Position numbers and translations under genes: made by a program. From the NCBI GenBank assembly GCA_903875045.1, contig CAIQUS010000206.1, positions 1 to 48,633 on the forward strand: a stretch of 48,633 nucleotides of DNA. The letters are read 5' to 3'. Below are positions 1 through 25,228 of this stretch, piece by piece (the first letter of the stretch is position 1; every line of letters starts with the position of its first letter). Under the pieces are notes generated by a model that had not been told where the DNA came from, did not search any database, and saw only the letters and a program-made list of their open reading frames with translations. Origin of the DNA: an uncultured Bacteroidales bacterium. GTDB taxonomy: Bacteria > Bacteroidota > Bacteroidia > Bacteroidales > FEN-979.

Positions 1-20
1 ACCGCAAAGAACACAAAGAA

Positions 21-102
21 ACCGCAAAGGGCCGCAGAGATAACTCGCAGATAATTATAACTTTGCGAAACTCTGCGAAAAAACTCTGCGGCCCTCTGCG
101 GT
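21..102. repeat. Imperfect inverted repeat in leader region
   Basis: Left arm 21-39 and right arm 84-102 are reverse complements over 19 bases with a single mismatch at base 26. The intervening 44 bases repeat the same purine-rich GCAAAG/GCAGAG words. It can form a long hairpin upstream of the first gene. A different sequence with the same layout occurs at 32712-32795. Function is unknown; a transcript-end or processing element is possible. Confidence 0.7.
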
Positions 103-138
103 TATATTATTTGTTAGCAGACTTATCGGAGTGCCCTC

Positions 139-165
139 AATTTTCAAATTTTCAAATTTGCACAT
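139..165. repeat. Short TTTTCAAAT-type tandem repeat
   Basis: Nine-base words of the form TTTTCAAAT are repeated here, followed by a CATCATCA-rich stretch, just before the first start codon. The reverse complement of the same word recurs at 8679-8716. This favours the ATG at 188 over the in-frame GTG at 131 as the start, because the 19 codons between them are repeat-derived. Confidence 0.55.
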
Positions 166-187
166 CATCACATCATCACATAAAACC

Positions 188-1246
188 ATGGCATACATAA
201 ATGGAATAGGGTTAATTTCACCACAAAGGACTGCAGAAACAGATGATTTTCTGTTAGAGCCTGTGGAATATTCGTCGGATTATCTGCGGTGTATTGAACC
301 GGCTTACAGGACCTATATCGATCCGATCCAGTCACGGAGGATGAGCCGGCTGATCAAGATGGGCATTGCTTCGGCCAAAATGAGCATGGCGGACGCAGGC
401 TGCACGATACCTGATGCCATTATTACCGGCACCGGACTTGGAAGCGTGGAGGATACTGAAAAAATTCTGGGAGAACTGACCAAAGAGGAGAAATTCCTGA
501 ACCCGACACCATTCATTCAATCAACCTACAACACCATAAGTTCGCAGGTGGCCATTCAGTTGAAATGCCACAATTACAACTCAACTTATGTACATCGCAC
601 TTTCTCGTTTGAAAGCGGACTGATCGACGGGCTGATGCAAATGGAGGAGCAAATTGCTGCCAATGTGCTGGTGGGGGCCATCGATGAGATGACCATGAAC
701 CACCTTCAGATTACCAGACGTGTCGGACACTGGAAGATGGAGCCGGTAAACAATCTTTCATTGCTGGATCATAAAACCCCTGGAGCCCTGGCGGGCGAAG
801 GCGCGGCATTTTTCGTATTAGGCGCCGAACCAGTTCCATTCGCTTACGCGGAACTGAAAGATGTTGCCACCTGTTACAACCTCAATGAATCCTTCCATCC
901 TGATTCATTTCTACAGGGATTTCTGGGAAAACACGGGCTTTCATTACAGGATATCGACCTGATTATCCTTGGCCTGAATGGCGATTGCGAACACGATCCC
1001 ACCTATACCGAATTTGCCAGCCGGTTTTTCCCCGGAAAAGCACAGGCCTGGTACAAACACCTATGCGGCGAATATCACACCGCAACCGGTTTCGGGCTGT
1101 ATGTTGCAGCCAACATCCTGAAGAAACAGGTTTATCCGGACATTTTGCATTTAAACCACATCCATCCTGAAAAGCTAAAGAACATTCTGATTTATAACCA
1201 TTTCAGAAATGTAAACCATTCTTTTATGCTGGTGCAGGGGTGTTAA
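188..1246 (+). CDS. Beta-ketoacyl synthase chain-length-factor-like protein (stand-alone)
   Basis: A 352-residue protein of the thiolase-fold ketosynthase family, similar to the chain-length-factor (CLF) partners in aryl polyene, flexirubin and type II polyketide systems. The ITGTGLGSVEDTE and GALAGEGAAFFVLG stretches fit the fold. The nucleophile elbow reads YVHRTFSFESG, so the catalytic Cys of an active ketosynthase is absent. It closely resembles the C-terminal half of the protein at 3356-5701 (shared ITGTGLG.VEDTEK, FIQST.NT, HLCGEYHTA, LIYNHFR), so the two are paralogues. I chose the ATG at 188 because the upstream GTG extension is encoded by repeats. It probably pairs with a catalytic ketosynthase to set acyl chain length. 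The rest of its cluster probably lies left of the window. Confidence 0.82.
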   Translation: MAYINGIGLISPQRTAETDDFLLEPVEYSSDYLRCIEPAYRTYIDPIQSRRMSRLIKMGIASAKMSMADAGCTIPDAIITGTGLGSVEDTEKILGELTKEEKFLNPTPFIQSTYNTISSQVAIQLKCHNYNSTYVHRTFSFESGLIDGLMQMEEQIAANVLVGAIDEMTMNHLQITRRVGHWKMEPVNNLSLLDHKTPGALAGEGAAFFVLGAEPVPFAYAELKDVATCYNLNESFHPDSFLQGFLGKHGLSLQDIDLIILGLNGDCEHDPTYTEFASRFFPGKAQAWYKHLCGEYHTATGFGLYVAANILKKQVYPDILHLNHIHPEKLKNILIYNHFRNVNHSFMLVQGC

Positions 1247-1380
1247 CTTCATTACGGAATCAGTTTTGGTTTTACCACAAAACTTTATCATTTACTCAAG
1301 TTTCGGAGTTAACCGAGTGTCATGATAATTTATTATTCATGAGAGTTCTCAATGGTTTCTATTAGAAAATCCAATCATAT

Positions 1381-1554
1381 CATCCCTTCGGGATTTTGTT
1401 GCAAATCAATATGGTTCACTACTACAATCATTTCATCCCTTCGGGATTCTGTTGCAAATCAATATGGTTCACTACTACAATCATTTCATCCCTTCGGGAT
1501 TCTGTTGCAAATCAATATGGTTCACTACTTCAATCATCTCATCCCTTCGGGATT
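1381..1554. repeat. 53-base tandem repeat, 3.3 copies, with CCCTTCGGG hairpin cores
   Basis: The word CATCCCTTCGGGATT occurs at 1381, 1434, 1487 and 1540, exactly 53 bases apart, and the DNA between the words is nearly identical. Each core is a short palindrome with a TTCG loop. The intervening sequence is conserved rather than variable, so this is a tandem repeat and not a CRISPR array. Confidence 0.85.
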
Positions 1555-1593
1555 TTGTCGTGAAGCAGGGAATGACATTCCAACGACCAAAAG

Positions 1594-3355: not shown

Positions 3356-5701
3356 ATGTCAAAAAGGGTCTATGTTACCGGGATCGGGATTGTATGTGCC
3401 ATTGGGAACAATGTGGAGGAAACCCTGCAATCGTTGCTGAGTGAACAATCGGGAATCGGAGAAATAACGCTGTTCAAAACCATGCACAAGGGGATTATCC
3501 CCATGGCCGAGGTTAAAATACCTACCAGTGAATTGCTTGAAGAGCTTGGTCATGCAGGTGAAAAAAAATTCACCCGTACCGCTTTGCTGGGGATGAAAGC
3601 AGCAAAGGAGGCACTTGCATCATCAGGCATTCAGGATATCCATCAATATAAAACCGGATTGATCTCCGCTACAACTGTTGGCGGGATGGACCGGAGCGAA
3701 GGTTTTTATGCATCATTTCTGGCTGACCCGAAGAAAGGCCGCCTCACCGACATCGTCAATCACGACTGTGGCGACAGCACCGAACGCATTGCAACCTCTT
3801 TGGGGATCAAGGATTATATAACTACCATCAGCACGGCCTGTTCATCATCGGTGAATGCCATCATGGCCGGCTCAAACCTGATCAAAACCGGACAGCTCGA
3901 CAGGGTGATCGTCGGGGGAACGGATTCGGTGACCAGGTTCACCCTCAATGGCTTCAACACCCTGATGATCCTCGATAAAACCGGATGCCATCCTTTTGAT
4001 GAAAACCGTGCCGGACTCACACTGGGTGAAGGAGCAGCTTTCCTGGTGCTTGAGTCGGAAGAGGTCGTTCAGAAAGAGCAAAAGACCATCCTGGCTGAAG
4101 TGTCGGGCTATGGCAATGCCAATGATGCTTATCATCAAACGGCATCATCTCCGGAGGGCACCGGGGCCTTTATGGCCATGTCGCAGGCTTTGGCAATGAG
4201 CGGACTGTCACCGGACAAAATAGATTACATCAACGTACATGGCACAGGCACCCAAAACAACGACCTTTCCGAAGGCATTGCCATGGAGCGCCTTTTCGCA
4301 GATCAGGTCCCTCCATTCAGTTCCACCAAGGGCTATACCGGCCATACACTAGGGGCAGCTGGTGCAGTTGAAGCAGTTATTTCCATCCTGACGATTCAAC
4401 ACCAGGTCATCTTTCCGAACCTGCATTTTTCAACCCCGATGAAGGAGTTGCATATCCGGCCGGTGACCTCCATTGAGACCTTCCATGAAACGTCTTCATC
4501 TCGTGAAATCATCAACGTGTTGTCCAATTCCTTTGGTTTCGGAGGGAATAATTCGGCCATCGTATTGTCAAATCCGAAATCCCAAATCCCAAATCCCAAA
4601 TCCCAAATTTCCAATTTCCAATTTCCAATTTCCAACATCTTCATCAACGGCCTCGGAAATGTTTCTCCGCAGAAAACCACCGACAACAGCCGTTTTCTTG
4701 AGGAACCGATATCATTTGACACCAATCAGTTAAAGTGCATTGATCCGGGGTATAAGGAATTTATTCCGGCTGAAATGATTCGCAGAATGGGCAGGATCAT
4801 CAAGATGGGTGTAGCCGCATCGAAGTTATGCCTGAAGGATGCCGGCAGCGGGCATGCCCCTGACGCGATTATCACAGGCACAGGACTGGGATGTGTGGAA
4901 GATACCGAAAAGTTTCTCGCTTCGATGATCAATAACAATGAGGAGTTCCTCACCCCTACCTCGTTTATACAAAGCACCCACAACACGGTAGCCGGGCAGA
5001 TCGCATTGCTGCTCAAATGTCATGGTTATAACTTTACGTATGTCCACCGCGGAATTTCTTTCGAAACCGCACTGGGGGATGCCATGACTCAAATGCAGAT
5101 GGGCGGATTCGCCCATGTTCTGGTTGGCGGGTCCGATGAGCTTACAGCCAATTCCCATACCATCACCTCCCGGCTGGGCTTCTGGAAACCAAAGCCTGTT
5201 CATTCATTCAACCTACTGAATGATAAACAACACGGTACCATCGCAGGAGAAGGAGCCTCGTTCATGTTTCTTGAAACACAAAAAAATGAACACACTTATG
5301 CACAGCTTACCGGCGTGACCACCTTTCTGAAACCCGCCTCCAAACTGGAGGTTCAAAAGCGGCTTCATGATTTCCTGGCAACCTTTGGATTAACAACGGG
5401 TGATATTGGCCTTGTCATCCTTGGACTGAATGGCGATCCCTGCGGCGACCAGGCATACCATGACCTTGTTGAAACAGAATTTCAGCAGACTTCGCTGGCT
5501 TATTTCAAACATCTCTGCGGTGAGTATCACACCGCTTCGGCATTTGGTGCATGGCTTGGCGCAATGATCCTGAAAACACAGTCGGTCCCCGAGGTGGTCA
5601 GGGTAAATAATCCACTGAAACAACCGAAGCTGGAACATGTACTCATATACAACCATTTCAGAGAAAACAACCAAGTATTTATCCTGCTAAGCCGCCCGTA
5701 A
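3356..5701 (+). CDS. Ketosynthase-CLF fusion protein (3-oxoacyl-ACP synthase II type)
   Basis: A 781-residue protein with two ketosynthase folds in tandem. Residues 1-404 form an active FabF-type enzyme: Cys162 in TACSSS, His295 in VHGTGT, His330 in GYTGHTLGAAG, and the NSFGFGGNN motif at 391-399. Residues 405-427 are a linker encoded by a 7-bp-period repeat. Residues 428-781 form a CLF-like fold in which the Cys region reads YVHRGISFETA, so no nucleophile is present. This half is a paralogue of the protein at 188-1246. KS and CLF normally form a heterodimer that condenses malonyl-ACP onto a growing chain; here they are covalently joined. The deacetylase gene begins at the next base, so the genes are probably co-transcribed. 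An aryl polyene, flexirubin or dialkylresorcinol-like product is inferred from context only. Confidence 0.85.
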   Translation: MSKRVYVTGIGIVCAIGNNVEETLQSLLSEQSGIGEITLFKTMHKGIIPMAEVKIPTSELLEELGHAGEKKFTRTALLGMKAAKEALASSGIQDIHQYKTGLISATTVGGMDRSEGFYASFLADPKKGRLTDIVNHDCGDSTERIATSLGIKDYITTISTACSSSVNAIMAGSNLIKTGQLDRVIVGGTDSVTRFTLNGFNTLMILDKTGCHPFDENRAGLTLGEGAAFLVLESEEVVQKEQKTILAEVSGYGNANDAYHQTASSPEGTGAFMAMSQALAMSGLSPDKIDYINVHGTGTQNNDLSEGIAMERLFADQVPPFSSTKGYTGHTLGAAGAVEAVISILTIQHQVIFPNLHFSTPMKELHIRPVTSIETFHETSSSREIINVLSNSFGFGGNNSAIVLSNPKSQIPNPKSQISNFQFPISNIFINGLGNVSPQKTTDNSRFLEEPISFDTNQLKCIDPGYKEFIPAEMIRRMGRIIKMGVAASKLCLKDAGSGHAPDAIITGTGLGCVEDTEKFLASMINNNEEFLTPTSFIQSTHNTVAGQIALLLKCHGYNFTYVHRGISFETALGDAMTQMQMGGFAHVLVGGSDELTANSHTITSRLGFWKPKPVHSFNLLNDKQHGTIAGEGASFMFLETQKNEHTYAQLTGVTTFLKPASKLEVQKRLHDFLATFGLTTGDIGLVILGLNGDPCGDQAYHDLVETEFQQTSLAYFKHLCGEYHTASAFGAWLGAMILKTQSVPEVVRVNNPLKQPKLEHVLIYNHFRENNQVFILLSRP
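4570..4633. repeat. Heptamer tract inside the KS-CLF reading frame
   Basis: AAATCCG, four AAATCCC units (4577-4604), AAATTTCC, then three AATTTCC units (4613-4633) lie exactly at the junction of the two domains and encode a Ser/Asn/Pro/Gln/Phe linker. Because seven is not a multiple of three, loss of one unit would end translation at 4733 and gain of one unit at 4701. Either would leave the KS half intact without the CLF half. Confidence 0.85.
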
Positions 5702-6505
5702 ATGTTCACATTTCGCCGCTTCACGCTGATTTTTTTCATCATACTTCTGAGCCTGAACCTCTGGAACATCATCCTGTCAAAATCCTCCGGGGGATTTATA
5801 CATGACCAAACCCCTTTGTTGTACGGGCTGTTGTTTACCCTCTATTTTGGAATATCATTCGCCATGGCCTTCCTGCCTTGTACCAATTTTCATCACCCGG
5901 TGATCTGCCACGGAAGAGGTGACGAAAAATCGGTTTCCATCACCTTTGATGATGGCCCTGAACCGGTGAAAACCCAGCTCATTCTGGATATCCTGAAGAA
6001 ATATGAAGTGAAAGCAACATTTTTCTGCATCGGCAATAAACTGGCAGGTCAGGAGCCGGTCTTGAAGCAGATGCATGATGAGGGACACCTTATTGGCAAC
6101 CATTCATTTTCACATTCCAAATGGTTTGACCTCTTTCCTGCGAAGATCATTCGGGCCGAGTTACTGAAAACAGACCAAATTATTAAGAATATTACCGGCA
6201 AATCACCCCTGTTTTTCCGCCCGCCATTTGGTGTTGTGAACCCGATGGTAAGCAATGCTTTGAAAAAAACGCACTGGCAGGCGGTTTGCTGGAACATCCG
6301 TTCATTGGATACCATTCAGAAAAATCCTCAAAAAATCATGCAAAAAATTCTCAGGAAATTATCACCGGGTTCGATCATCCTGCTGCACGATTTTTCACCG
6401 TTCACCCTGCAACATCTTGATGACTTGCTGATGGCAATCACCAGGAAGGGATACCAAATTGTTCCCCTGGATCAACTGATAAAATTGCCGGCTTATGGTG
6501 AATAA
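5702..6505 (+). CDS. Membrane-anchored polysaccharide deacetylase (NodB family)
   Basis: A 267-residue protein with two hydrophobic N-terminal segments (about 7-25 and 38-58) followed by a NodB domain. Motifs visible are TFDDGP at 81-86 with metal and catalytic Asp83/Asp84, the metal-binding pair His134 and His138 in NHSFSH, RPPFG at 173-177, and LLHD near the C-terminus. The family removes N- or O-acetyl groups from carbohydrates using a divalent metal. Its ATG directly follows the stop of the KS-CLF gene, implying translational coupling. Family members occur in some polyene and flexirubin loci, where the substrate is not clear. The topology suggests a catalytic domain outside the inner membrane. 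Confidence 0.88.
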   Translation: MFTFRRFTLIFFIILLSLNLWNIILSKSSGGFIHDQTPLLYGLLFTLYFGISFAMAFLPCTNFHHPVICHGRGDEKSVSITFDDGPEPVKTQLILDILKKYEVKATFFCIGNKLAGQEPVLKQMHDEGHLIGNHSFSHSKWFDLFPAKIIRAELLKTDQIIKNITGKSPLFFRPPFGVVNPMVSNALKKTHWQAVCWNIRSLDTIQKNPQKIMQKILRKLSPGSIILLHDFSPFTLQHLDDLLMAITRKGYQIVPLDQLIKLPAYGE

Positions 6506-6542
6506 ATGTACCTCAACCCCCGAAAGTGATGCTATGGTGGGA

Positions 6543-6717
6543 AATTCCAAGTCTCAAATTCCAAGTCTCAAATTCCAAGTCTCAAATTCCAAGTCTCAAA
6601 TTCCAAGTCTCAAATTCCAAGTCTCAAATTCCAAGTCCTGCTTTCAATGCCTTTTAAACCAACACACTTTAGTTTTCCCCTTGGGATTTGGATCCTGGAA
6701 TTTGGATCTTGGAATTT
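6543..6717. repeat. Heptamer/14-mer repeats in opposing orientations
   Basis: Six full copies of AATTCCAAGTCTCA (6543-6626) plus a partial copy form a 14-base (2 x 7) tandem array. After a 45-base gap, five heptamers of the GGATTTG/GGAATTT type (6683-6717) run in the complementary sense. The two halves could pair into a long imperfect hairpin in the mRNA between the deacetylase and LolA-like genes. Open frames here only translate the repeat. Confidence 0.8.
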
Positions 6718-6754: not shown

Positions 6755-7402
6755 ATGCCAACCAAAATATTGATCCATCTCATTGTATTAATGGCATGGT
6801 GGATACCTTGCCCGGCCAACTGCCAGAACAGTCCATTGGATGGGGTTTCCATCGAATCCCTTAAAACACGTGTCAAGGAGGTAGCCTGGAATACCCGGAC
6901 CATTGCCTGCGATTTTTCCCAGGAAAAGGAGATGAGTATGATCAGTGAGAAGATCAAATCGAACGGAAAATTCTACCTGAAAAAAGAAAAAATGCTCCGT
7001 TGGGAGTATTTACAACCTTTTTCGTATCTCATCGTTATTAAAAATGACCAGATATCCATCCAGGATGAGTACAAAGTAACCCATTTTCAGGTGCATTCGA
7101 ACGAAGTTTTCCGCGAGATAAACCGCATCATTCTTGGCAGTATCCAGGGAACATTGCTCACTGATGACCAAAATTTCAAGGCAACTTATTTTGAAAGTCC
7201 AACATCCTGGGTCGTAAAGTTAAAAACATTAACTCCAAAGCTGAAAGAATCACTGTCGGAAATTGTCATTTATTTCGACAGGAAGGATTACATGGTCAAT
7301 CAGCTCGACATGCACGAACCCGGCGGCGATTTTACCCGGATCACCTTTACCTCCAGAAAACTCAACCAACCCATTGCCGATGAAAAATTTATGGTTCGTT
7401 AG
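6755..7402 (+). CDS. LolA-like outer-membrane lipoprotein carrier protein
   Basis: A 215-residue protein with a signal peptide (hydrophobic to about residue 22, then ANCQ). Its core resembles LolA, the periplasmic chaperone that carries lipoproteins or lipids to the outer membrane: an early CDFSQEKEMSMI segment, SNGKFYLKKEKMLRWEY for the first strands, and later FDRKDYMVNQLDMHEPGGD. It differs clearly from the second LolA homologue at 45809-46444, which sits beside ftsK in a conserved place. Its stop overlaps the next gene's start by 23 bases, pointing to coupled translation. In polyene-type loci such LolA paralogues are thought to help move the lipid product. That role is inferred here. Confidence 0.8.
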   Translation: MPTKILIHLIVLMAWWIPCPANCQNSPLDGVSIESLKTRVKEVAWNTRTIACDFSQEKEMSMISEKIKSNGKFYLKKEKMLRWEYLQPFSYLIVIKNDQISIQDEYKVTHFQVHSNEVFREINRIILGSIQGTLLTDDQNFKATYFESPTSWVVKLKTLTPKLKESLSEIVIYFDRKDYMVNQLDMHEPGGDFTRITFTSRKLNQPIADEKFMVR

Positions 7403-8117
7403 CATCATCTTTGTATTGGTGGCAGGTTGTATTTCCATTAAACCATCTCACACCAATCGTCAATCGTCCATCATCAATCGTCAATCATCAACGGTTGTCT
7501 CTTATACCACCCCGGTGGTAAGCCATCTTTTTAAAGCTACCCTGGATATAAAAAAGCATCATCTTACAGGATTGCTGGTGATTAAGAGGATGGAAACACC
7601 ACCCCCGGCCCCGGCCCCTCCCCAAGAAGGGAGGGGAGAAACACCACCCCCGGCCCCTCCCCCTGCCCCTCCCCAAGAAGGGAGGGGAGAAGATTCGTCA
7701 GGGATTTATAGGATTGTGTTTATGAATGAGATCGGGATGACATTTTTTGATCTGGAATTGTCTGCCGACAGTTTGAAGGTAGTCTCCTGCTTCGAATCGT
7801 TGAATAAAAAAGCGCTGATGAAGATTTTTGAGACTGATTTCAGGGTGCTGAACTGGTCAGGATTGGTTCAAAACGAGCAGGTGTACCTGCAGAAGGAAAC
7901 CAACAATATGATTGTAAAGGGCAGGATCGGAAAGTATAAAACCTGGCAAACCTATTCTCCTTCAGGAGATACCCTTTGTACCATCGCGGCAAAATCGAGC
8001 ATTGCCGATCCGGTTATCATCAGCTTTGTTCAATATAATGACGGGTTTCCCGGAAAAATCACCATCGAAAATCCCTTTATCGGGATGAAACTGGCATTGA
8101 GAAAACTATCGAAATAG
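7380..8117 (+). CDS. Lipoprotein of the KS/LolA locus, unknown family
   Basis: A 245-residue product. The ATG at 7380 gives a clean lipoprotein signal (WFVSIIFVLVAGC, lipidated Cys17), so longer frames upstream are rejected. Residues 26-37 are encoded by CAATCGT heptamers, and a later Pro/Ala/Gln/Gly-rich stretch is encoded by two GC-rich hairpin repeats (7615-7687). The remaining sequence (IYRIVFMNEIGMTFFDLELS, then a C-terminal ITIENPFIGMKLALRKL) looks like a beta-rich LolB/LolA-like fold. The gene overlaps the preceding LolA-like gene by 23 bases. A role as outer-membrane acceptor for whatever the LolA-like protein carries is a guess from position. Confidence 0.7.
   Translation: MKNLWFVSIIFVLVAGCISIKPSHTNRQSSIINRQSSTVVSYTTPVVSHLFKATLDIKKHHLTGLLVIKRMETPPPAPAPPQEGRGETPPPAPPPAPPQEGRGEDSSGIYRIVFMNEIGMTFFDLELSADSLKVVSCFESLNKKALMKIFETDFRVLNWSGLVQNEQVYLQKETNNMIVKGRIGKYKTWQTYSPSGDTLCTIAAKSSIADPVIISFVQYNDGFPGKITIENPFIGMKLALRKLSK
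7454..7488. repeat. CAATCGT heptamer tract inside the lipoprotein gene
   Basis: Five consecutive heptamers (CAATCGT, CAATCGT, CCATCAT, CAATCGT, CAATCAT) lie nine codons after the lipidation Cys. Losing one unit brings a stop at 7519-7521 and gaining one a stop at 7532-7534, leaving peptides of about 44 or 53 residues. This is the layout of an on/off slippage switch. Confidence 0.8.
7615..7687. repeat. Two GC-rich palindromic repeats within the lipoprotein gene
   Basis: CCCCTCCC...GGGAGGGG hairpins with a CAAGAA loop occur at 7615-7636 and 7666-7687 inside the reading frame. They encode APPQEGRGE-type peptides. A related hairpin lies between genes at 45704-45727, so this repeat family is found in both coding and non-coding DNA here. 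Confidence 0.75.
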
Positions 8118-9562: not shown

Positions 9563-9565
9563 GTG

Positions 9566-9614
9566 GATTTACGATTTACGATTTACGATTTGGGATTTAC
9601 GATTTAGGATTTAC
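9566..9614. repeat. GATTTAC heptamer tandem repeat
   Basis: Seven consecutive heptamers (GATTTAC x3, GATTTGG, GATTTAC, GATTTAG, GATTTAC) lie between the divergent SDR and aldose epimerase genes. They are three bases from the SDR start and could alter its translation or the spacing of promoter elements. Confidence 0.85.
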
Positions 9615-9641
9615 AATTGAGGGCCAAAAATAGGAAGAATG

Positions 9642-10882: not shown

Positions 10883-10922
10883 GATTTGGGATTTGGAATT
10901 TGGAATTTGGAATTTGGAATTT
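10883..10922. repeat. GATTTGG/AATTTGG heptamer tandem repeat
   Basis: Two GATTTGG and three AATTTGG units (10883-10917) plus a partial unit stand directly before the response-regulator gene. A longer in-frame start at 10893 would translate this repeat, so the ATG at 10932 is preferred. Confidence 0.85.
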
Positions 10923-19694: not shown

Positions 19695-19758
19695 GATTTA
19701 CGATTTACGATTTACGATTTACGATTTACGATTTAACGATTTAACGATTTACGATTTA
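19695..19758. repeat. GATTTAC heptamer tandem repeat after smpB
   Basis: Five perfect GATTTAC units (19695-19729), two GATTTAAC units, another GATTTAC and a partial one fill the whole space between smpB and the thioredoxin-like gene. They start one base after the smpB stop. The same heptamer is found at 9566-9614. Confidence 0.9.
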
Positions 19759-23926: not shown

Positions 23927-25228
23927 ATGAATATTACCACAGAAAGTACAGGACCACTTACCCTCCTTCTTAAAATCGGTATCGAACCGGCTGATTATTC
24001 TGCCGCCATTGAGAAACAAATTTCAGACTACAGGCGCAAAGCGAATATACCCGGGTTCAGACCAGGCCACATTCCAATGGGCCTTATTAAAAAGATGTAC
24101 GGTAAAGCCATCCTGGCAGATGAAGTAAATAAACTCATTTCCGACAGCCTGATCGGTTATATCAGGGATGAAAAACTCGATATCTTGGGCAATCCTTTGC
24201 CAAACCTCGAAAAAAATTCAGCCATCGATTTTGAAAATCAGGATTCTTTTGAATTTTATTTTGACCTTGGACTGACCCCTGAATTTGCAATCCCAATTGA
24301 TCAGGATCTGAATATTGAGAATTATATCATCTCGGTTGATGATATAATGATTGATAAATACATCGAAGATACCCGCAAACGGTATGGCAAACCAGTCATT
24401 TCGGATGCCACCGAAGAGGAGGCATTAACGGATGGCGAAACCGAAGACCCAAAATCCGGGGCTGAAGAAACGCAACCAGTGCAGGAGGAATTACAAAAAA
24501 CCCCCATAGAACCGGTTGTTGAGCCTGCAGAACTGAATCCGGAATTTTTTGAAATGGTGTACCCTGGCCGAAACATTCAAACTGAAGAGGATTTCAGGAC
24601 GCAGGTCAGAAATGACGCTTCACTCAGTTTTGCTTATGAAACAGACAAACTGCTTTTCAATTCCATCACCGAAGCCCTGGTAAAAAACACGGAAATGCCT
24701 TTGCCCGATGAATTTCTTAAACGCTGGCTCGTCGAAAACAATGATGGAAAGTATACTCCTGAGGAGATTGAAAAAAACTACACATCCTTTGCCGAATCGA
24801 TGAAATGGCAGCTTATAGAGAACAGGCTGATCAAAGAGCACAACCTTGAAGTTACGGAAGAAGAGATCAGAAATTATATCAAAATTAACATGTTGCGTCA
24901 GATAAACGCAGAAGATATGGAACCTGAAATGGTACAACGGTACGAATCGATCGTTGATACCTTTATGAAAAACAAAGATCAGGTAAAACGGATAAACGAC
25001 CAGCTGTACAATGATAAAATGATGCAATTCTTCAAATCAGCCATGGTCTTTCACCCGAAAGAGGTTTCTTATGAAGATTATATCAAAATTGCCTCTGAAA
25101 ACCACAACCATGACCATGACCACGATCATGACCATGACCACGACCATGACCACGATCATGACCATGACCACGACCATGACCACGATCACGACCATGACCA
25201 CGATCATGACCACAGCCATCAACATTGA
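23927..25228 (+). CDS. tig: Trigger factor lacking the PPIase domain, with His-rich tail
   Basis: A 433-residue ribosome-associated chaperone. The N-terminal ribosome-binding domain is intact with the signature loop GFRPGHIP at 43-50 (His replaces the usual Lys at 48). Where the FKBP-type PPIase domain of about 100 residues should follow residue 155, there is only an acidic, Pro/Thr/Glu-rich linker (159-202). The family motif AELNPEFFE (201-209) and the helical substrate-binding arms then resume. Residues 393-433 alternate His with Asp, Asn, Ser or Gln (21 His), like the metal-binding tail of SlyD. The ATG at 23927 removes a tRNA-overlapping extension. clpP and clpX follow, as in many bacteria. 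Confidence 0.88.
   Translation: MNITTESTGPLTLLLKIGIEPADYSAAIEKQISDYRRKANIPGFRPGHIPMGLIKKMYGKAILADEVNKLISDSLIGYIRDEKLDILGNPLPNLEKNSAIDFENQDSFEFYFDLGLTPEFAIPIDQDLNIENYIISVDDIMIDKYIEDTRKRYGKPVISDATEEEALTDGETEDPKSGAEETQPVQEELQKTPIEPVVEPAELNPEFFEMVYPGRNIQTEEDFRTQVRNDASLSFAYETDKLLFNSITEALVKNTEMPLPDEFLKRWLVENNDGKYTPEEIEKNYTSFAESMKWQLIENRLIKEHNLEVTEEEIRNYIKINMLRQINAEDMEPEMVQRYESIVDTFMKNKDQVKRINDQLYNDKMMQFFKSAMVFHPKEVSYEDYIKIASENHNHDHDHDHDHDHDHDHDHDHDHDHDHDHDHDHDHDHSHQH
25103..25215. repeat. Hexamer/30-mer repeat encoding the His-Asp tail
   Basis: GACCAT/GACCAC/GATCAT hexamers encode alternating Asp-His. A 30-base higher-order period is visible (GATCATG at 25124 and 25154). As the period is a multiple of three, copy-number change would alter tail length without a frameshift. 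Confidence 0.85.

What the first reader, a model, noticed from the sequence alone, without database searches (positions are those of the whole stretch)
4570..4633. Possible heptamer slippage switch at the ketosynthase-CLF junction
A tract of about nine 7-base units lies in frame exactly between an active ketosynthase and its CLF half. Reading the other two frames by hand shows that losing one unit ends translation at 4733 (about 456 residues) and gaining one ends it at 4701 (about 450 residues). Both leave the ketosynthase intact and remove the CLF. No in-frame ATG near the start of the CLF half allows re-initiation. The locus could thus switch between a fused pair and a lone ketosynthase, changing chain length or product.
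Basis: partly seen in the sequence, partly recalled or inferred. Interest (0 to 1): 0.75.

Follow-up and report, generated by a model that had tools for sequence, protein, structure and literature searches.

The report
Heptamer repeat fusing two pigment genes
A short 7-base repeat has overrun the gap between two enzyme genes of a bacterial pigment pathway and joined them into one gene; it looks like one of many such repeats that sit in frame inside ordinary genes of this bacterium and its relatives, rather than a dedicated genetic switch.

Summary
In detail: a 67-bp heptamer tract (4569-4635) lies in frame between a ketosynthase and a CLF; -1 unit ends at 4733 (456 aa), +1 at 4701 (450 aa). 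Switching could not be tested, and context argues against a dedicated switch. In 26 of 26 relatives inspected KS2 and CLF2 are separate genes; the tract replaced the KS stop and put ATT where relatives have the CLF ATG. The same two motifs form 31 arrays in this genome; by my tally 16 lie in frame inside Pfam-matched proteins, among them MurG-MurC, PurL, PolA, MeaB and a TsaB-like protein. Five of these genes, compared across the genus, show 7-bp DNA arrays in 47 of 86 rows (5 rows are this genome), lag 8 in 8 rows, six other lags in none. Different genes of one genome share units above permutation (13 of 57 pairs, mean 3.1, this genome excluded; weaker at stricter cut-offs). Best reading: genus-wide spread of heptamer arrays, kept where in frame, which here fused two flexirubin-type genes. 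No strain or read data were available.

The parts
3356..4573 (+). Ketosynthase half (KS2, aa 1-406) of the 781-aa fusion
   Evidence: Pfam PF00109/PF02801; 63-82% identical KS2 in relatives (per-locus values)
4569..4635 (+). Heptamer tract in the former KS-CLF spacer; encodes the linker NPKSQIPNPKSQISNFQFPISN
   Evidence: TRF, translation
4569..4608 (+). First sub-array, AAATCCC/CAAATCC class, 5.7 copies
4606..4635 (+). Second sub-array, AATTTCC, 4.3 copies
4628..4630 (+). ATT codon at the position of the CLF start ATG of several relatives (L032, L035, L036, L040)
   Evidence: aligned by eye on the INGxGxxSPQ motif
4628..5701 (+). CLF half (CLF2), no start codon of its own before 4775
   Evidence: Pfam PF13723; start codons listed; homologous separate CLF genes
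4699..4701 (+). Stop reached after +1 (or -2) unit
4731..4733 (+). Stop reached after -1 (or +2) unit
4485..4487 (+). ATG in another frame inside the KS end that would read into the CLF after +1 unit
131..1246 (+). First CLF (CLF1); its KS1 lies on contig C140, whose start overlaps the window start
5702..6505 (+). Polysaccharide deacetylase directly after the fusion
6755..7402 (+). LolA2 of flexirubin type (NF053544, 209 bits, cut-off 125)
7263..8117 (+). ORF holding LolB2 of flexirubin type (NF053540, 88.7 bits, cut-off 60); true start probably further in
9565..9622 (+). Another heptamer array (GATTTAC class), between genes
10884..10922 (+). Another heptamer array (ATTTGGA), at the start of the response-regulator ORF
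19695..19758 (+). Another heptamer array (GATTTAC, 8.9 copies), directly after an ORF

Best explanation
The tract is one member of a family of dispersed 7-bp tandem arrays that has spread through this genome and, with other units, through its genus. Such arrays settle in spacers and, where they leave the frame open, in linkers and loops of proteins. At the KS2-CLF2 spacer the array grew over the KS stop codon and replaced the CLF start (ATGACCAA-like sequence became ATTTCCAA), leaving two stop-free sub-arrays that happen to be in frame, so KS and CLF of a flexirubin-type pigment pathway are now made as one polypeptide with a linker of about 20 residues. Shown: tract, frame, separate genes in relatives, dispersed arrays, in-frame arrays in other genes, genus-wide recurrence with changing units. 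Inferred: order of events, that the fused protein works, that unit changes are rare, and that units spread from site to site.
For: 26 of 26 relatives inspected (16 of the same genus, 10 of other genera) keep a stop codon between KS2 and CLF2. ATT lies where L032, L035, L036 and L040 have ATG. The AATTTCC triple unit gives 44 overlapping matches in this genome and 1 in the 42 other family genomes; AAATCCC 16 here, 14 in six of the 42 others. 31 places carry either array (two repeated rows dropped); by my tally 16 are interior and in frame in proteins with Pfam matches, 1 interior in an ORF without a match, 6 at or before an N-terminus, 8 without a long ORF. Lag-7 DNA repeats (22 or more of 28) in 47 of 86 orthologue rows of five genes: TsaB-like 8 of 18, PurL 15 of 19, MurG-MurC 7 of 14, PolA 9 of 20, MeaB 8 of 15; lag 8 in 8 rows, lags 4, 5, 6, 9, 10, 11 in none. 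With this genome left out, 13 of 57 same-genome pairs of different genes share an exact heptamer class, permuted mean 3.1, 0 of 5000 shuffles reach it. The array also stands in both orientations within genes (NFQFPIS or GNWKLEI peptides), so it is a DNA-level, not a protein-level, feature.
Against: No ancestor or sister strain is at hand, so the order of events is inferred. The five genes were chosen because they carry arrays here. The sharing of units weakens at stricter cut-offs (6 of 40 pairs, 40 of 5000 shuffles reach it, at 18 bp; 4 of 34, 138 of 5000, at 20 bp). In the KS2-CLF2 spacers of the 26 relatives only 4 (L018, L020, L034, L181) show a strong short-period repeat, so this spacer is not a hot spot in most species. 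Nothing shows that the fusion is expressed or active; the AlphaFold model is of middling confidence (mean pLDDT 63.3, pTM 0.73).
Confidence: 0.75

Rival explanations
1. Phase-variable switch: slipped-strand mispairing of the heptamers toggles a KS-CLF fusion against a lone ketosynthase and so alters the pigment.
For: Non-triplet unit, about nine units, frame consequences as computed. Heptanucleotide tracts are potential or known phase-variation elements in Haemophilus influenzae, mostly in promoters (PMC2651432, passages read).
Against: No variation data. The same arrays sit in frame in housekeeping-type genes. The tract is two shorter sub-arrays of different unit. The fusion was seen in one genome of 27.
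Confidence: 0.14
2. The tract or its unit number is mis-assembled, or the CLF is translated on its own from the ATT or from ATG 4485, so that no stable fusion exists.
For: Repeats break assemblies here: the window begins in the KS1-CLF1 spacer, where its first bases overlap the end of contig C140. An out-of-frame ATG at 4485 would serve a +1 state.
Against: The tract is 67 bp with unique flanks inside a contig, short against usual reads (inference; read length unknown). The fused frame is open over all 781 codons.
Confidence: 0.07
3. The fusion is a degenerating, non-functional locus.
For: Loss of the CLF start codon; a second KS-CLF pair exists in the genome.
Against: No stop in either half; the KS motifs TACSS, HGTGT and TGHT are invariant in the nine-row alignment (their catalytic role is recalled).
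Confidence: 0.04

Closest known systems
Dispersed heptanucleotide repeats: TAACTGA repeats of Beggiatoaceae, Cyanobacteria and five Bacteroidetes (PMC4679880, passages read); GGGAATC repeats of Xanthomonas and GGGGA(C/T)T of Nostoc (PMC4692102, passages read)
   Same: 7-bp unit, scattered over the genome, lineage-specific unit; long arrays and other heptamers noted in Bacteroidetes spacers
   Different: Those are described as mainly intergenic and under-represented in coding regions; here 16 of 31 arrays lie in frame inside Pfam-matched proteins (my tally)
Short-repeat satellite families in prokaryotes (PMC6749651, passages read)
   Same: Heptamer-derived families, e.g. 22 satellites of one heptamer in Chloroflexus aurantiacus; a transposition-like spread is suggested there
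   Different: No recurrent in-frame invasion of the same genes across a genus appears in the passages I saw
ORF fusion and fission by microsatellite indels in Mycobacterium tuberculosis and M. bovis (PMC1501019, passages read)
   Same: A repeat-length change joins two neighbouring ORFs
   Different: There short mononucleotide runs shift a frame; here an array replaces stop codon, spacer and start codon
Heptanucleotide contingency tracts, e.g. upstream of hmw1a/hmw2a of Haemophilus influenzae (PMC2651432, passages read)
   Same: Heptamer array whose unit number could change gene output
   Different: No variation shown here; array coding, in frame, and of a family present in housekeeping genes
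ApeO-ApeC KS-CLF heterodimer of aryl polyene synthesis (PMC8358021, passages read)
   Same: KS plus CLF working as a pair
   Different: There two separate proteins, and a CLF about half the size; here one polypeptide with a full-length CLF

Membership tests
Phase-variable (contingency) repeat locus | Tandem repeat in or before a gene with unit length that shifts the frame | tested here: met
Phase-variable (contingency) repeat locus | Unit number varies between cells or strains | not testable with these tools
   No reads, no second strain; metagenome scans capped at 0
Phase-variable (contingency) repeat locus | Arrays concentrated in surface or host-interaction genes rather than housekeeping genes (recalled criterion) | tested here: not met
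   16 of 31 arrays interior to proteins such as PurL, MurG-MurC, PolA, MeaB, E2, NAD synthase
Dispersed heptanucleotide repeat family | One 7-bp unit as tandem arrays at many sites of a genome | tested here: met
Dispersed heptanucleotide repeat family | Preference for spacers, under-representation in genes | tested here: inconclusive
   8 of 31 arrays have no long ORF, 6 are at N-termini, 17 interior; not corrected for the coding fraction of the genome
KS-CLF pair of a flexirubin-type cluster | Intact KS motifs, CLF without the cysteine, flexirubin-type neighbours | tested here: met
   TACSS, HGTGT, TGHT invariant and CLF reading YVHRGISFE at the matching place (motif roles recalled); LolA2_flexi and LolB2_flexi above cut-off
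KS-CLF pair of a flexirubin-type cluster | Two separate genes | tested here: not met
   One 781-codon frame here; separate in 26 of 26 relatives inspected
Rickettsia-type palindromic elements inserted in frame in genes (recalled) | Long palindromic, hairpin-forming element | tested here: not met
   The tract is a head-to-tail 7-bp array of 67 bp; papers on these elements seen as a search listing only

The most novel reading that the evidence does not exclude
A process peculiar to this Bacteroidales lineage lays down and copies 7-bp arrays around the genome, housekeeping genes included; each species carries its own units, the same protein loops are re-seeded again and again with new units, only in-frame copies survive, and now and then an array erases a stop and a start codon and makes a new fused gene. 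That would be a mutational or selfish element below the size of any insertion sequence that writes new linkers into proteins.
Probability: 0.3. Interest if true: 0.75.

Novelty: new variant of a known kind. Interest (0 to 1): 0.5.

Why it matters
It shows a simple route by which two genes become one: a short repeat overruns the stop of the first and the start of the second. More broadly, 7-bp arrays inside PurL, MurG-MurC, PolA, MeaB and a TsaB-like protein across a genus, at the DNA period of 7 and with units that go with the genome, make a testable question of how heptamer repeats, long known to be over-represented in bacteria, arise and spread, and how much protein linker sequence they write. 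If the copying reading is right it is a new kind of mobile behaviour; if not, it still warns against reading such tracts as phase-variation switches.

Tried and rejected
MurG-MurC as a second array-made fusion: rejected. At least 12 of the 18 other members of the genus searched have MurG and MurC in one open frame (G009, G012-G018, G020, G021, G024, G025), so that fusion is older than the array in its linker.

KS1-CLF1 as independent fusions in G013, G018, G019, G032 (suggested by open frames of 816-846 aa): rejected; none of the 17 KS1-CLF1 junctions read is fused (the other 3 of the 20 stretches were KS2).

Protein-level function of the repeat peptide: unlikely, since both orientations, with different peptides, occur and the repeat is exact at the DNA period of 7.

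Programmed frameshifting was considered and set aside: no long homopolymer or known slippery heptamer was seen by eye; not tested further.

Outside the genus the evidence is thin: of 12 MurG-MurC or MurC/MurG frames from other genera, 1 (G037) reached 22 of 28 at lag 7; 4 further frames of the genus (G010, G019, G023, G026) did not; in many of these only one half was scanned, so the linker may have been missed. In 100-kb samples two genomes of genus g2 had no period-7 run of 21 bp and G032 of g4 had 3. These samples are not random: several contigs of G012, G016 and G025 were picked because earlier hits lay on them, and some contain the very genes discussed.

Structure: one AlphaFold job, nine rows; the search of solved folds could not run. 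Not in print: a description of in-frame heptamer arrays recurring in the same genes was not found in searches of the open-licence library (listings; passages of six papers read); flexirubin with phase variation gave 0 papers.

Full report
What is there. The window carries, at 3356-5701, one 781-codon frame whose first half is a ketosynthase (Pfam matches within aa 3-358) and whose second half is a CLF-type ketosynthase relative (aa 468-596). Between them lie two abutting 7-bp arrays, 4569-4608 and 4606-4635. Neighbours are a second CLF, a polysaccharide deacetylase, and LolA2 and LolB2 of flexirubin type above their NCBIfam cut-offs, so this is a flexirubin-type pigment locus.

Relatives. P0001 was sought in 43 genomes of the family, this one included. 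In all 26 a stop codon separates the genes; spacers or overlaps differ widely. The other 16 relatives of the 42 were not read at this junction. Aligned on the INGxGxxSPQ motif, four relatives (L032, L035, L036, L040) have ATG exactly where the window has ATT at 4628; most others have it one or two codons earlier. The window reads CCAATTTCCAAC where L035 reads CCAATGACCAAT, so the last heptamer unit stands where the start codon was. In the spacers of the 26 relatives only L018, L020, L034 and L181 show a strong repeat of period 4 to 10. The 17 KS1-CLF1 junctions read are all unfused, but in several an array of 8 or 9 bp extends the KS1 C-terminus; in this genome too the KS1 tail and stop stand in such an array.

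The tract belongs to a family. Three AATTTCC units in a row give 44 overlapping matches in this genome and one match in the 42 others; three AAATCCC units give 16 here and 14 in six others; the reversed control patterns gave none. I fetched or held every place: 31 after dropping two repeated rows. With at least 40 codons in frame on both sides, 16 arrays are inside proteins with Pfam matches: KS-CLF, MurG-MurC (two), a protein matching the TsaD family that by length and motifs I take for TsaB (recalled), PolA, lipoyl E2, MeaB, NAD synthase, FAD oxidase, a HemN-like radical SAM protein, Lnt, alpha-2-macroglobulin, a glycosyltransferase, PurL (two) and FecR. One more is inside an ORF without a Pfam match, six are at or before an N-terminus and eight have no long ORF. 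This tally is mine, made by hand from those calls.

Genus-wide recurrence. I compared TsaB-like, PurL, MurG-MurC, PolA and MeaB genes in the genus. Alignments show heptapeptide-like inserts that differ between species in the same variable stretches. At the DNA level 47 of 86 rows have a window with at least 22 of 28 identities at lag 7; 8 rows reach this at lag 8, none at lags 4, 5, 6, 9, 10 or 11. Five of the 86 rows are this genome and two PolA rows (L313, L316) are one gene, so 41 of 80 without them. In PurL the arrays lie in several variable stretches, not one. Exact period-7 runs are also the commonest class in the sampled DNA: 13 of 26 runs of period 3 to 12 in this genome; of 36 period-7 runs in all samples 14 are interior and in frame, in a sample that is not random.

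Genome-specific units. With this genome left out, arrays in different genes of one genome share an exact heptamer class in 13 of 57 pairs (runs of 16 bp or more), permuted mean 3.1, 0 of 5000 shuffles reaching it; at 15 bp 15 of 63 (0 of 5000), at 18 bp 6 of 40 (40 of 5000), at 20 bp 4 of 34 (138 of 5000). With it included, same-genome pairs share in 18 of 67 and same-gene pairs of different genomes in 27 of 259. So the unit goes more with the genome than with the site. Copying between sites would give this; so would a genome-specific mutation bias.

Mechanism. Most likely the spacer acquired or grew a heptamer array, as spacers and loops do in this lineage; the array replaced the KS stop and the CLF start; the frame left open happened to join the two genes, and selection for CLF would keep it. 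The steps after the anatomy are inference. A model of the fusion gives mean pLDDT 63.3 and pTM 0.73 with the linker 410-424 below 50, in keeping with a loose linker but too weak to judge the pairing of the halves. A switch remains possible, since each change of one unit would part the genes, but nothing measured supports it, and in-frame arrays of the same kind in housekeeping-type genes suggest that unit changes are not frequent.

Known work. Heptamer repeats in Bacteroidetes and Cyanobacteria spacers, in Xanthomonas and Nostoc, short-repeat satellites in prokaryotes, ORF fusion by microsatellites and heptanucleotide phase variation are in print (passages of PMC4679880, PMC4692102, PMC6749651, PMC1501019, PMC2651432). 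KS-CLF pairs act as heterodimers of two proteins in aryl polyene synthesis (passages of PMC8358021). My searches found no account of in-frame heptamer arrays recurring in the same genes across a genus, within the limits of an open-licence library. I rate this a new variant of a known kind.

Noticed in passing
L174:1340-1890 (G021), also L176, L169, L167, L179: KS1-CLF1 spacers carry an array like CAATGCAGA at the KS1 end and its complement before the CLF1 start, an inverted pair; the G021 stretch folds at -201.7 kcal/mol, z -10.2 against shuffles. The other four were seen by eye only.
   Followed up: partly
window 1-127 and L127 (G000:C140:1-330): The window's left end overlaps the start of contig C140, so the assembly breaks in the KS1-CLF1 spacer; the KS1 C-terminus and stop lie in an 8-bp array.
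   Followed up: partly
L184 / L035 (G022 KS2): A long tandem repeat (CGATGATACCGGGCACATGGATACGGGGCC-like unit) is inserted in frame in the C-terminal part of the ketosynthase itself.
   Followed up: no
window 6542-6637: Perfect 14-bp array AAATTCCAAGTCTC, 6.9 copies, in the spacer before LolA2.
   Followed up: no
window 25101-25213: Coding array of 12/18/30-bp units (ACCACGACCATG), a histidine-rich stretch.
   Followed up: no
window 1372-1558: 53-bp unit repeated 3.5 times (96% matches) in a spacer.
   Followed up: no
L149:3052-3079 region: In a glycosyltransferase gene the heptamer stands first in one and then in the other orientation (peptides GNWK then FEFPISNFQF), an inverted pair inside a coding sequence.
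   Followed up: no
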